Shown: positions 20,333 to 53,622 of the stretch, piece by piece
Position numbering within the stretch: position 1 is the first letter of the stretch
Layout of the letters: the number at the start of each line of letters is the position of its first letter
Translations under genes and position numbers: made by a program
DNA from: Bacteroidales bacterium
GTDB lineage: Bacteria; Bacteroidota; Bacteroidia; Bacteroidales; UBA12077
DNA: 53,622 bases
Assembly (NCBI GenBank): GCA_028282785.1
Contig: JANQHE010000042.1
Span: 1 to 53,622 of the forward strand
Direction: 5' to 3'
The notes under the pieces: generated by a model
Seen by the model: only the letters and a program-made list of their open reading frames with translations
Told to the model about the DNA's origin: nothing
Database searches by the model: none

Positions 20333-20411
20333 ATTCACTAAGTTTATTTTACCATAGCGAGGGGAAAACCAAAATAAAGTAAGATTTAGAATTTGAATGA
20401 ATTACATCATT

Positions 20412-20490
20412 TTCCATGTTCCTACGACAGTTCTAGCTGTTTCAGGTTCTAAGGGTGTAATCTCAGCCCGGAATATTTAGGCACCCCCCA
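20412..20490 (-). promoter_or_regulatory. TPP riboswitch (THI element) upstream of the thi operon
   Basis: On the minus strand: GGGGGGTGCC, GGGCTGAGATTACACCCTTA, GAACCTGAAACAG, CTGTCGTAGGAACATGG. These are the THI-box blocks including the CUGAGA pyrimidine pocket and GAACCTGA. The sensor ends about 80 bp before thiS. It would switch thiSC and downstream genes off when TPP is plentiful. With the promoter and thioredoxin terminator listed separately it accounts for most of the 20333-20714 gap. Confidence 0.96.
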
Positions 20491-20503
20491 TATTTTAGTA
20501 CAA

Positions 20504-50575: not shown

Positions 50576-50612
50576 CTTAACAGGGTAAAACCCCGCATAG
50601 AATTTGAACGTG

Positions 50613-50951
50613 TTATGCATTGTATTTTTTTGATAATTCCTTATATGTCTGCCAACATAAGAAGATAATTATACCTGTCTCAGCGCTAAAAAATGTGATA
50701 ATAGCTATTAACCAATCTATCAGACCCTTATTTTTCGAGTCAACAAGAATAAAGACAGTCAGAATGAGATTTATAAAAAATGTTACTGTTATCATTATTG
50801 ACTGAAGTGTCTTATATGTATGCTCCAACATGTCAGGATTAGGATGCATTGTATAATAAAGGTTTATTCCATAAGATTGTATGAAACGAACAATTACAGT
50901 ATAAATTAATAGAAATATTACATACTTTGTAATTAACTTTTTAATTCTCAT
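50613..50951 (-). CDS. Small integral membrane protein, hypothetical
   Basis: This 112-residue protein has about three transmembrane helices (residues 8-25, 50-66 and 75-98: YVIFLLIYTVIVRFIQSY, ITVTFFINLILTVFILV, WLIAIITFFSAETGIIIFLCW), with KKYNA at the C-terminus. I do not recognise a family. It starts 10 bp after the stop of the upstream lipoprotein gene, so the two form one transcript. A terminator follows. Confidence 0.7.
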   Translation of the reverse strand: MRIKKLITKYVIFLLIYTVIVRFIQSYGINLYYTMHPNPDMLEHTYKTLQSIMITVTFFINLILTVFILVDSKNKGLIDWLIAIITFFSAETGIIIFLCWQTYKELSKKYNA

Positions 50952-51570: not shown

Positions 51571-51586
51571 ACAAAAAAATTTACCT

Positions 51587-51660
51587 GTAACGGTCCTTGG
51601 GTATGAAGCTGTACGGGAGTTTTCCGTAGTTCAGTGTTCCCCGTAACCGAAAGCTAAAGA
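51587..51660. repeat. Degenerate copy of the Fic-flanking repeat module
   Basis: GTAACGG, then TATG, then CGGGA recur in the same order as in the module at 53176, with altered spacing. It lies 16 bp upstream of the lipoprotein gene start on the minus strand. The match is only partial. Confidence 0.35.
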
Positions 51661-51669
51661 TAACAAAAA

Positions 51670-51709
51670 CCTGCCTGACTGCCTAATGGCAGTTAAACCG
51701 ACAGGCAGG
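51670..51709. repeat. TGCCTG-type palindromic repeat, copy 3
   Basis: CCTGCCTG (51670-51677) and CAGGCAGG (51702-51709) form the outer stem. An inner hairpin ACTGCC/GGCAGT lies inside. It is the most elaborate of the three TGCCTG palindromes. Confidence 0.6.
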
Positions 51710-51829
51710 TTGTCAGACTGAGATGTAGTTTCCAACTTACAAAAGCTATCAAACTGTTAAGAATGACTTTAGATTTACGAACTTGAAAAGATGAAAAGCA
51801 GTTTACCTTTTCTGAAAAGGGCGCATGTT

Positions 51830-51967
51830 GGTAACGTTGAGTTTATGCGTAGTGGCGGATTTCGGAGCTCTTCGCTATCAAACTGAGATAGTGTTGATGT
51901 GAACTACAAACCTTGATATTTAATAAAATCCCCGCCATTACATATGACACATTGTTACCGCCTGTGC
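51830..51967. repeat. Repeat module A at the 3' side of the Fic gene
   Basis: GGTAACG (51830), ATGCGTAGTGGCGGATT (51845), GTTAC (51954) and TGTGC (51963) appear in the same order and at nearly the same offsets (15, 124, 133) as in module B (15, 122, 131). Each module is about 135 bp with GGTAAC/GTTACC terminal inverted repeats. It ends 5 bp before the Fic stop. Confidence 0.65.
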
Positions 51968-51971
51968 TTGG

Positions 51972-53042
51972 TTATCTCTTTGTCAATAAGTCAAATAATT
52001 CTTCGTTAATATAATAATTTCCAGTTCCCAGTTTATTTTTTCGCAACATTTTATCATCCGCCAATTTGTTTAAATAATTTGCAGCTGTTAATCTCGAAAC
52101 TCCAATGTCATTTATCACAAACTCAATCTTTGTATACGGGTGTTTAAATAAATTATTCAGCAAGTCCTGACTGTAAAATTTATAATTGTCACGAAGTCGA
52201 TGTTTGTAGTCAAGCATCAGTTCTTTAATCTTGATAATTAAATCAATCGTTTCTCGTGCCGTATTTTCAACTCCTTTAATCATAAATAAAATCCAATCCT
52301 CCCATAAGTTTTCGTCTCGTACCTTTTGCAAATACCTATAATAATCAGGTTTATGTTTGATGATATAATTACTTAAATATAGAATTGGCAAAGTCTGTAA
52401 TTTTTCCAAAATCAGGTATAAAATATTTATTATCCTACCTGTTCTGCCATTTCCGTCGTAAAATGGGTGAATACTCTCAAACTGAAAGTGAATTATTGCC
52501 ATTTTTATCAAAGGGTCGCAATCTTGAATCTCCGAATCGTTAATATATCGCTCCAGATTTGCCATTAGTTTCATTATTTCCTCATAATTTTGTGGCGGAG
52601 TGTAAATTGTCTCTCCAGTTGCAGCATTTTTTAATGCAGTTCCGGGAAGTTTTCTAAATCCAGCTTTATTGTCCTCAAGTATTTCTTGAATTAGTAATAT
52701 ACTCTTATTTGTCAGTAATCCAGTCTTGGTAATTAATTCAAATCCTTTTTTTAGTGCTGAAATATAATTTTGAACCTCTTTGGCTTGCAACGATTTAAAG
52801 GCATCAAGATTTAATTCCGACTTATATAAATCATCATGTGTTGTGATTATGTTCTCAATTGCCGAACTATCTTTTGCTTCTTGCAATCCAAGCGTATTAA
52901 TCAAAATATTTTGGTTGGGGATTGTCGAAGCGATTCCTTTAAGCTCTGCTAATGCAGCATGAGCTGAAGGTAAAGCCTTTAAAACCTTCTTTGTTTCTAA
53001 ATCAACATTTAACGGTAATTCTGTTAATCCCCAAGTATCCAT
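51972..53042 (-). CDS. Fic-family AMP-transferase with N-terminal inhibitory helix and winged helix
   Basis: This 356-residue protein has an N-terminal Fic_N region, the inhibitory motif (S/T)xxxE(G/N) as SSAIEN (E63), and the catalytic core HPFYDGNGRTGR (H192-R203). The flap region lies about 140-150. It would transfer AMP or another nucleotide group to a target protein, with E63 blocking ATP binding until released (class II Fic). The C-terminus (about 280-356) is a winged-helix domain (YTKIEFVINDIGVSRLTAANYLNKLADDKML), so it may bind DNA and regulate its own promoter. It is bracketed by repeat modules A and B. Confidence 0.93.
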   Translation of the reverse strand: MDTWGLTELPLNVDLETKKVLKALPSAHAALAELKGIASTIPNQNILINTLGLQEAKDSSAIENIITTHDDLYKSELNLDAFKSLQAKEVQNYISALKKGFELITKTGLLTNKSILLIQEILEDNKAGFRKLPGTALKNAATGETIYTPPQNYEEIMKLMANLERYINDSEIQDCDPLIKMAIIHFQFESIHPFYDGNGRTGRIINILYLILEKLQTLPILYLSNYIIKHKPDYYRYLQKVRDENLWEDWILFMIKGVENTARETIDLIIKIKELMLDYKHRLRDNYKFYSQDLLNNLFKHPYTKIEFVINDIGVSRLTAANYLNKLADDKMLRKNKLGTGNYYINEELFDLLTKR

Positions 53043-53068
53043 TTGTATAATTTTTTAAAAAATCTATA

Positions 53069-53076
53069 CAAAGATA
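53069..53076 (-). promoter_or_regulatory. -7 promoter box of the Fic gene
   Basis: The minus strand reads TATCTTTG, matching TAnnTTTG, 27-34 bases before the start codon. The -33 region overlaps the palindrome at 53085-53111. Confidence 0.45.
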
Positions 53077-53084
53077 AAGTCTTT

Positions 53085-53111
53085 TGTAAAGAAAATGGAA
53101 ATTTCTTTACA
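53085..53111. promoter_or_regulatory. Palindromic operator candidate of the Fic gene
   Basis: TGTAAAGAAA (53085-53094) and TTTCTTTACA (53102-53111) form a perfect 10-bp inverted repeat with a 7-base spacer. It covers the region where the -33 element of the Fic promoter should lie, the usual place for a repressor site. The Fic winged helix is a candidate binder. Confidence 0.45.
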
Positions 53112-53172
53112 TTTAATTGACGACATGTATAAAAAAATCAAAAATCTATGCATAAGGCTCTCTGGTTGCATT

Positions 53173-53317
53173 GGCGGTAACGGCTCGAATATGCGTAGTG
53201 CGGGATTGCCGCCCTGTTTCACAGTCCCCTGTTGGAAAAAGATGAAGATAGTACAAAGTTTGCAGAACACCAAAACCCGTATGCTGTAAGACCCGATGTT
53301 ACACACTGTGCGCTGAT
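53173..53317. repeat. Repeat module B at the 5' side of the Fic gene
   Basis: GGTAACG (53176), ATGCGTAGTGCGGGATT (53191), GTTAC (53298) and TGTGC (53307) match module A in order and spacing. The left end GGCGGTAAC is the reverse complement of GTTACCGCC at 51954-51962, so the Fic gene is also flanked by inverted 9-mers. Confidence 0.65.
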
Positions 53318-53435: not shown

Positions 53436-53527
53436 AAGAGGGATTGAAAGAAAAGAAAATTTCTCCTAGTGAAGATGAATTATTGTGGTTTTTTTCTGAA
53501 ATCCCCCTTAGTCCCCCTTTTAAAAAA

Positions 53528-53622
53528 CTACTCTTTATACACATCTTTTTTGTTTAAAACATTTACTGCTAATTTGAAACCATCATATTTATCATAAAAT
53601 ATATCAAGTCCATTTTTAATTG
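53528..53622 (-). CDS. Partial minus-strand gene, C-terminal 30 residues
   Basis: A minus-strand frame enters from the right edge and ends at a TAG at 53528-53530, giving IKNGLDIFYDKYDGFKLAVN followed by VLNKKDVYKE. The composition looks coding, but the fragment is too short to identify. It would be the upstream neighbour of the Fic gene. Confidence 0.4.
   Translation of the reverse strand, partial: IKNGLDIFYDKYDGFKLAVNVLNKKDVYKE

What the first reader, a model, noticed from the sequence alone, without database searches (positions are those of the whole stretch)
51587..53317. Fic gene bracketed by homologous repeat modules, cassette-like
Modules A (51830) and B (53176) share GGTAACG, ATGCGTAGTG, GTTAC and TGTGC at offsets 15/15, 124/122 and 133/131, have GGTAAC/GTTACC ends and are about 135 bp long. 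A degenerate third copy precedes the lipoprotein gene. The genes between are on the same strand, each beginning close to a module. This is the layout of a gene-cassette array, but the ends do not fit the integron attC core and no integrase is visible. It may be a Bacteroidota recombination system not recognised so far.
Basis: partly seen in the sequence, partly recalled or inferred. Interest (0 to 1): 0.7.

Follow-up and report, generated by a model that had tools for sequence, protein, structure and literature searches.

The report
Integron-like gene-capture system of Bacteroidota
The repeats on either side of this Fic gene look like the recombination ends of a mobile gene cassette, part of an integron-like gene-collecting system seen in many Bacteroidota genomes, whose recombinase lacks the domain that defines the known integron enzymes.

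Summary
Modules A (51829-51959) and B (53175-53303) are ~130-bp imperfect palindromes of one family (E 6e-22 and 5e-8); the third copy (51585) is truncated. The Fic gene is a 1,346-bp cassette between two inferred crossover points. Pairing is kept through many compensatory changes. Neighbouring modules point the same way in 80 of 81 pairs; the longest ORF between them runs opposite to them in 70 of 76 intervals.

A recombinase is on another contig (C53:54755-55846), followed by an attI-like site and an array. Near 80 relatives of it, 110 modules were found in 33 loci, all 110 on the opposite strand. Homology between relatives breaks at G^TT on the attI side and on the distal side, including in two complete Chryseobacterium plasmids.

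So it works like an integron. It is not one by definition: the recombinase forms a separate clade without the IntI-specific domain, and only 3 of 208 modules carry both RYYYAAC and GTTRRRY. Nine searches of open-access papers found no description. Recombination is inferred from comparison, not shown by experiment.

The parts
51829..51959 (+). Module A: attC-like site of the Fic cassette, written on the strand opposite to the gene (the inferred folded, bottom strand); inferred crossover between A51834 and C51835
   Evidence: R3 E 6.2e-22; 87% to C37 copy; fold
53175..53303 (+). Module B: attC-like site of the next cassette upstream (in gene direction) of Fic; inferred crossover between A53180 and C53181
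   Evidence: R3 E 4.9e-8
51835..53180 (-). Fic gene cassette, 1,346 bp between two inferred G^TT crossover points
   Evidence: same gene between two modules in G007 (L202)
51972..53042 (-). Fic protein (356 aa), SoFic-like adenylyltransferase; stop codon 13 nt from module A
   Evidence: Pfam PF13784, PF02661, PF21248; NF046030 373.6 bits, below its cut-off of 550
51585..51697 (+). Third module, truncated: 5' arm (~43 nt) intact, 3' arm not recognisable
   Evidence: R3 E 0.05; 93-97% to C53 modules over 36-43 nt
51591..51834 (-). 244-bp unit between the third module and A without a listed ORF of 60 aa; holds a sequence that recurs at cassette starts on C42, C8 and C57
50962..51570 (-).
50613..50951 (-). 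Small ORF (112 aa), membrane-protein-like by eye; no PADLOC or Pfam match; its stop overlaps the half module
50592..50615 (+). Half module (3' arm only), left edge of the recognisable array in this contig
   Evidence: pattern search, 0 expected

Best explanation
This is part of a gene-cassette array of an integron-like capture system. Each cassette is as a rule one gene followed by a ~130-bp imperfect palindrome (the module). A tyrosine recombinase encoded elsewhere in the genome (364 aa, contig C53) binds the module as a folded single strand: an R box TAACG/TGTTA, a spacer unpaired mainly on one side, an L box, in part of the sites one extrahelical base on the 3' arm, then a long variable stem. 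It joins the module to a double-stranded attI-like site just downstream of its own gene, crossing over at G^TT (AA^C on the folded strand). Cassettes enter at attI and stack up; excision and reinsertion shuffle them. Shown by comparison: the module family, conserved pairing, array geometry, linkage and orientation of the recombinase, the attI-like site, breakpoints at G^TT, absence of the IntI-specific domain. Inferred: that this recombinase does the reaction, that the folded strand is the substrate, which strand is cut, and that a circular cassette is the intermediate.
For: Conserved structure: 81 modules, 91.8% of cells paired against 69.4% in shuffles, 391 cells with two-sided changes against 121.5 (the alignment was fitted to this structure); in the 34 rows of the own genome 145 against 51.2. 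Geometry: 80 of 81 neighbouring modules on the same strand; longest ORF opposite in 70 of 76 intervals (4 over 4 kb set aside), stop codon within 60 nt of the module in 51 of those 70. Linkage in relatives: the surroundings of the recombinase were fetched in 12 further genomes; in 7 (G004, G005, G006, G012, G015, G063, G067) the contig ends within 600 nt downstream of it, and in the other 5 (G003, G007, G011, G016, G017), as in the own genome, modules follow within 0.6-7 kb, all on the opposite strand (coordinates). In the 80 best loci from the genome collection: 110 modules in 33 loci, 110 of 110 on the strand opposite to the recombinase, 105 downstream; of 37 loci with at least 2 kb downstream 28 have a module there, of 24 that end within 600 nt none. 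attI-like site: 29 of 72 loci carry TAWANDYDAGTTR within 250 nt of the stop against 4 of 354 control windows (8 of 80 loci too short; the motif was drawn up on the same family). Breakpoints (120 nt each side): two Chryseobacterium plasmids 94% left of ACAAG^TT, 46% right; G007/G017 82% and 54%; distal end of an array in G015/G012 62% (two different modules) and 94%; random pairs median 50%, maximum 58%. G012/G015 proximal: 83% left, and different after AACTAG^TTA by eye (right side too short to score). Co-occurrence: 32 relatives with the recombinase (E<1e-45) have a median of 7.5 modules, 45 without have 2, p=1e-4. The arms pair better on the module strand than on its complement in 171 of 204 modules, 6 ties.
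Against: No reaction was observed. Of the 45 relatives without the recombinase at that cut-off (chosen after seeing the list), 19 still have 3 or more modules, so other lineages, decayed arrays or incomplete genomes must account for them; G004, G056 and G062 have the recombinase and no module hit. In 22 recombinase loci with short flanks only 2 had a module. Loci with the strict attI motif are no richer in modules than those without (p=0.63). Strand uniformity is not universal: in the loci, 16 of 20 neighbouring pairs agree, and L242 and L256 mix strands; in L083 the module is on the same strand as the recombinase. By folding energy module B's own strand does not form the stem while its complement partly does, and for A both strands fold about equally well (-15.5 and -15.3). 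The strand test leans towards the strand on which the models were trained. In the second Chryseobacterium plasmid no module was found in 19 kb. In this genome the window's array and the recombinase are on different contigs.
Confidence: 0.86

Rival explanations
1. A true integron: a divergent IntI and divergent attC sites, nothing more.
For: Same layout; AAC and GTT core in 187 of 208 modules, G after AAC in 180; 57 single-G bulges on the 3' arm of the folded strand counted over 204 modules; IntI4 among the best structural matches. In canonical attC sites the base after AAC is mostly G and a G in the L'' box lacks a partner (PMC2727003, passages). In one 20-kb stretch with a canonical IntI (L234, G082) four modules of the new type lie 4-6 kb away and no recombinase of the new type was found in the stretch.
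Against: The recombinase scores 193 bits against the IntI model's cut-off of 265. It has about 42 residues fewer between the box-II lysine and HxxR (median 64 in 32 rows against 106 in 9 IntI; for IntI the script picked the lysine, but the printed alignment shows the same 42 gap columns), where IntI carries its specific domain; Xer rows lack it too. It lies in a branch apart from 14 IntI rows with support 100. RYYYAAC and GTTRRRY are both present in 3 of 208 modules. R3 finds no module in three other stretches with a canonical IntI (55 kb; whether these hold canonical arrays was not checked). The own genome has no IntI hit over the cut-off.
Confidence: 0.1
2. Cassettes are moved by the host XerC/XerD, with no dedicated recombinase.
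For: XerD is present (L014, 350 bits against a cut-off of 329.6).
Against: Recombinases of about 30-35% identity that look like XerC/D (my label) occur in most of the 78 genomes, while arrays sit next to the other recombinase in a fixed orientation.
Confidence: 0.03
3. Modules are REP/MITE-like hairpins spread by a Y1 (IS200/IS605, RAYT) transposase and lie by chance after genes.
For: Hairpins with wobble pairs; 5 Y1 hits over the cut-off in the genome, one of them with stops.
Against: None of the 5 is near an array (C60, C9:11919 with the array at 55-71 kb, C42:12717, C62, C45). Breaks fall at G^TT inside the R box, and arrays start beside the tyrosine recombinase.
Confidence: 0.02
4. Modules are RNA elements (terminators or 3' UTR structures) of the genes before them.
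For: Conserved pairing with G-U pairs; position just after stop codons.
Against: The kept G-U pairs are on the strand opposite to the genes; on the mRNA strand they are A-C mismatches. It would not explain breakpoints at G^TT. No Rfam family matches the modules of the window at gathering score.
Confidence: 0.02

Closest known systems
Integrons (IntI / attI / attC), sedentary chromosomal type
   Same: Mostly single-gene cassettes in one orientation, palindromic site after each gene, recombinase next to an attI-like site, breakpoints at G^TT, AAC/GTT core, G after AAC, extrahelical G on the L'' side in part of the sites
   Different: Recombinase of a separate branch, without the IntI-specific domain and with an extra ~90-residue N-terminal part; heptamer consensus not kept; spacer unpaired mainly on one side; one extrahelical base or none in most of these folds; the attI-like site lies downstream of the recombinase gene and the cassette genes read in the same direction as it
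'Integron-like' subgroup of simple tyrosine recombinases (Smyshlyaev et al. 2021, PMC8138268, passages)
   Different: The passages seen describe no Bacteroidota cassette system; whether these proteins are in that subgroup was not tested
XerA / NF040815 'site-specific tyrosine recombinase/integron integrase'
   Same: Best NCBIfam match of the recombinase; a plasmid relative bears this name in its record
   Different: 198.7 bits, under the cut-off of 220; XerA acts on dif-like sites (recalled), not on cassettes

Membership tests
Integron | IntI integrase with the IntI-specific domain (PMC9668308, passages) | tested here: not met
   TIGR02249 193 < 265 bits; 62-residue stretch of IntI4 against 17 in the query, unaligned; box spacing 64 against 106; separate branch
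Integron | attC sites bounded by RYYYAAC and GTTRRRY (PMC3053210, passages) | tested here: not met
   both in 3 of 208 modules; bare AAC and GTT in 187 of 208 (4 of 212 at locus edges left out)
Integron | attC structure: R box, unpaired spacer, L box, extrahelical bases, variable stem (PMC2727003, passages) | tested here: inconclusive
   R, L and stem present; over 204 modules 155 bulges of 2+ nt on the 5' arm, and single 3' bulges: 57 G and 27 of another base (counts of bulges, not of modules); two or three extrahelical bases on one arm, as in attC, not seen as a rule
Integron | Tandem array of single-ORF cassettes in one orientation | tested here: met
   80 of 81 and 70 of 76; but mixed strands in L242 and L256
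Integron | attI site adjacent to the integrase gene | tested here: met
   by comparison
Integron | Crossover at G^TT | tested here: met
   breakpoints in sequence comparisons; not by experiment
Integron | Integrase recombines the folded bottom strand | not testable with these tools
   only a stability bias of the arms, 171 of 204
Integron | Pc promoter that drives the first cassettes | not tested
   -
XerA (NF040815) | Score over the curated cut-off | tested here: not met
   198.7 < 220
REP/RAYT | Y1 transposase linked to the repeats | tested here: not met
   5 Y1 hits over the cut-off, none near an array

The most novel reading that the evidence does not exclude
Bacteroidota carry a second lineage of gene-cassette capture that recombines folded single-stranded sites without the I2 domain described as specific to, and needed by, integron integrases. 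It is either a survivor from before I2 arose or an independent invention, and it is the main cassette system of the class Bacteroidia, where canonical IntI is almost absent (1 of 48 sampled genomes over the cut-off, against 31 of 48 with modules).
Probability: 0.62. Interest if true: 0.93.

Novelty: new variant of a known kind. Interest (0 to 1): 0.87.

Why it matters
Integrons are held to be rare in Bacteroidetes: the IntegronFinder 2.0 survey names one complete integron there, in Salinibacter ruber, and only In0 before (PMC9024848, passages), although reviews list Bacteroidota among the phyla with integrons (PMC8618304 and PMC9668308, passages). If this reading is right, that rarity partly reflects a detection model built on IntI and its attC sites, and a large pool of mobile genes (toxins, Fic, restriction and candidate defence genes) has been overlooked, on chromosomes and on plasmids. 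It also makes a mechanistic question directly testable: how can a tyrosine recombinase handle folded single-stranded sites without I2, the domain said to accommodate extrahelical bases and not found elsewhere (PMC4792948, passages)? The sites here mostly have one such base or none, which would fit.

Tried and rejected
Short words shared by A and B as evidence: rejected, chance explains them. Repeat finder on the window's right end: did not report the modules as a family. Rfam on the window: only a TPP riboswitch elsewhere. XerC/D, REP/Y1, RNA element: see rivals. The other tyrosine recombinases of the genome over the Pfam cut-off (L016-L018, 363-462 aa) look like CTnDOT-type integrases (recalled label); no array was seen beside them in the stretches read. 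The mazEF-like cassette of C53 (my label, no family search) has a homologue in G016, but there it is a plain chromosomal gene pair in a stretch without module hits, so it says nothing about mobility. In G012/G015 a 4-kb difference between C52 and C76 has no module at its edges. Structure comparison of the recombinase: archaeal Xer, IntI4 and XerA all match; the N-terminal ~80 residues were barely tested by it, and residues 1-90 have no Pfam match. Papers: nine searches of open-access PubMed Central found no description in their listings; preprints and most subscription journals are not held.

Full report
1. What was checked. The window is a whole contig (C7) of a 5.5-Mb genome in 81 contigs; that it is of the Bacteroidota is inferred from the named relatives of its recombinase. 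A seed alignment of five genome copies gave covariance model R1, then R2 from 34 rows and R3 from 81 rows. With R3 and filters off, the window's last 6.6 kb hold module A (E 6.2e-22), module B (E 4.9e-8) and a truncated third copy (E 0.05). A half module lies at 50592-50615.

2. The modules are structured. Over 81 modules, 91.8% of paired cells are standard pairs (shuffles 69.4%), with 391 cells changed on both sides (shuffles 121.5) and a covariation score of 0.555; sliding the partner by 1-3 columns drops it to 0.06-0.09. The alignment was fitted to this structure, so these numbers lean towards it; the 34-row set from the own genome gives the same picture. Some G-U pairs are kept (74 of 79 cells at one pair). 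The arms form TAACG/TGTTA, a bulge mostly on the 5' arm, an L-like box and a long stem, in part of the sites with one extra base, most often G, on the 3' arm. As duplexes of the arms, the module strand is more stable than its complement in 171 of 204 modules, with 6 ties and 27 the other way. For whole modules the two strands are close in energy in most of the five tested, and module B's own strand does not form the stem while its complement partly does.

3. The modules are the tails of cassettes. In 32 fetched stretches R3 found 102 modules (E up to 0.1), in 21 of the 32. Of 81 neighbouring pairs, 80 lie on the same strand. Four intervals over 4 kb were set aside; in the other 76 the longest ORF runs opposite to the modules in 70, and its stop is within 60 nt of the module in 51 of those 70. 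In the window the Fic stop is 13 nt from module A. A later set of loci was less regular: 16 of 20 neighbouring pairs agree.

4. The recombinase. The genome has five tyrosine recombinases over the Pfam cut-off. One (L015:937-2031, C53) is followed by modules from 0.6 kb after its stop to near the contig end. In 12 further genomes whose recombinase surroundings were fetched, the contig ends within 600 nt downstream in seven; in the other five (G003, G007, G011, G016, G017) modules follow, all on the strand opposite to the recombinase, the first within about 7 kb. Of 565 relatives found in the genome collection the best 80 loci were kept (Flavobacterium, Algoriphagus, Chitinophaga, Winogradskyella, an Ignavibacteria MAG, also single Spirochaetes and Halonatronum records). 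They hold 110 modules in 33 loci; all 110 are on the strand opposite to the recombinase, 105 downstream of it and 5 upstream (in L141 and L197). Of 37 loci with 2 kb or more downstream, 28 have a module there; of 24 that end within 600 nt, none. In 22 recombinase loci with short flanks only 2 had a module, one of them (L083) on the same strand as the recombinase.

5. The attI-like site. After the stop codon many relatives share inverted-repeat arms and an end of the kind TAWANDYDAG^TTR; beyond it the sequences differ. This motif is found in 29 of 72 loci against 4 of 354 control windows, but it was drawn up on this family, and loci with it are no richer in modules (p=0.63). A second copy without a recombinase lies on C42 after a cold-shock-like gene (my label).

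6. Breakpoints at G^TT. Two complete Chryseobacterium plasmids (NZ_CP041688.1 and NZ_CP094530.1) are 89.7% identical over 3,211 nt that include the recombinase, and the match ends at GACATATAAACAAG^TT: 94% identity over 120 nt before, 46% after. The first has four modules downstream, all in the expected orientation; in the second none was found in 19 kb. G007 against G017: 82% and 54%. At the far end of an array, G015 and G012 share the flank from TTAGTC on (94%) while the modules before it differ (62%, two members of one family). Random 120-nt pairs give a median of 50% and a maximum of 58%. G012 and G015 also part at AACTAG^TTA beside the recombinase, though one contig ends too soon to score that side. 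The Fic gene lies between two modules in G007 too, with other neighbours; in G010 no module was found beside it.

7. Is it an integron? By working, very likely; by membership, no. IntI is defined by a specific domain (PMC9668308, passages). The recombinase scores 193 bits against a cut-off of 265 for the IntI model, aligns to IntI4 in two parts with 62 residues of IntI4 against 17 of its own left between them, and has 64 residues between the box-II lysine and HxxR (median of 32 rows, with outliers of the automatic count) against 106 in nine IntI (for IntI the script chose the lysine nearest 100 residues away, but the printed alignment shows the same 42 gap columns). In a quick tree of 56 rows 33 recombinases of the new kind form one branch (SH-aLRT 95) and 14 IntI rows another (100). 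Deep branches are open, and one long-branched recombinase from G048 (L236) falls outside both. The attC heptamers are both present in 3 of 208 modules, the bare AAC and GTT in 187. R3 finds no module in three stretches around canonical IntI genes, but four in a fourth (L234). Shared with attC are the G after AAC, a spacer and, in part, the extra G on the same arm (PMC2727003, passages), so common descent of the two systems is possible.

8. Distribution. R2 hits (E<=1e-3) occur in 58 of 78 genomes of the relatives set, own included. R3 hits (E<=1e-4) occur in 96 of 198 genomes drawn across the phylum: the own, 31 of 48 of the same class and 64 of 149 of other classes. IntI over its cut-off occurs in 57 of the 198, but in 1 of the 48 of the same class; 22 genomes of other classes have both. 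These searches scored a limited number of candidates per genome with strict filters, so module counts are lower bounds. Relatives with the recombinase (E<1e-45) have more modules than those without (median 7.5 in 32 against 2 in 45, p=1e-4), but 19 of the 45 still have three or more, and G004, G056 and G062 have the recombinase and none.

9. What it means for the finding. The Fic gene is cargo; nothing here bears on its activity. The arrays carry other genes typical of cassettes: PIN and ParE toxins, an APH-family kinase, a PDDEXK-type candidate defence gene, pairs that look like HigBA and MazEF (my labels, no family search) and ORFs with lipoprotein-like starts (by eye).

10. Limits. E-values of the models are rough and the models were trained on hits of earlier rounds. 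No experiment was made. Nine paper searches (listed under Tried and rejected) found no description in the open-access library, which holds no preprints; a description elsewhere cannot be excluded. One tyrosine-recombinase survey notes that the IntI insertion is not fully conserved in its integron-like subgroup (PMC8138268, passages), so the proteins, if not the system, may already be on a published tree.

Noticed in passing
20402-20498 (-): TPP riboswitch at 62.9 bits.
   Followed up: no
L022:10571-10647 (C42:96570-96646): A second attI-like site, 90% identical to that behind the recombinase, without a recombinase gene beside it, after a cold-shock-like gene and followed by a cassette start.
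   Followed up: partly
51710-51830: A ~110-nt sequence at the start of a cassette recurs at cassette starts on C42, C8 and C57; perhaps a shared leader or promoter.
   Followed up: no
L110, L116, L117 (G005, G012, G015): The same chromosomal flank (88-94% identical) carries two quite different lineages of the recombinase (71% and 40-41% to the own one), as if the platform had been swapped at a fixed place.
   Followed up: partly
53512-53622: The contig's last 110 nt are 98% identical to the end of contig C8; repeats of this kind may have broken the assembly.
   Followed up: no
L202, L203 (G007, G010): A pair that looks like HigBA (my label) lies directly before the Fic gene in both genomes, in a cassette of its own in G007 and without detected modules in G010.
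   Followed up: partly
L234 (G082): Four modules of the new type 4-6 kb from a canonical IntI in one genome of another class; whether the two systems exchange cassettes is open.
   Followed up: no
attI-like sites in L129, L132, L134, L142 and others: Inverted-repeat arms whose sequence differs from genome to genome while the symmetry stays (by eye); they may be binding sites of the recombinase's N-terminal part.
   Followed up: no
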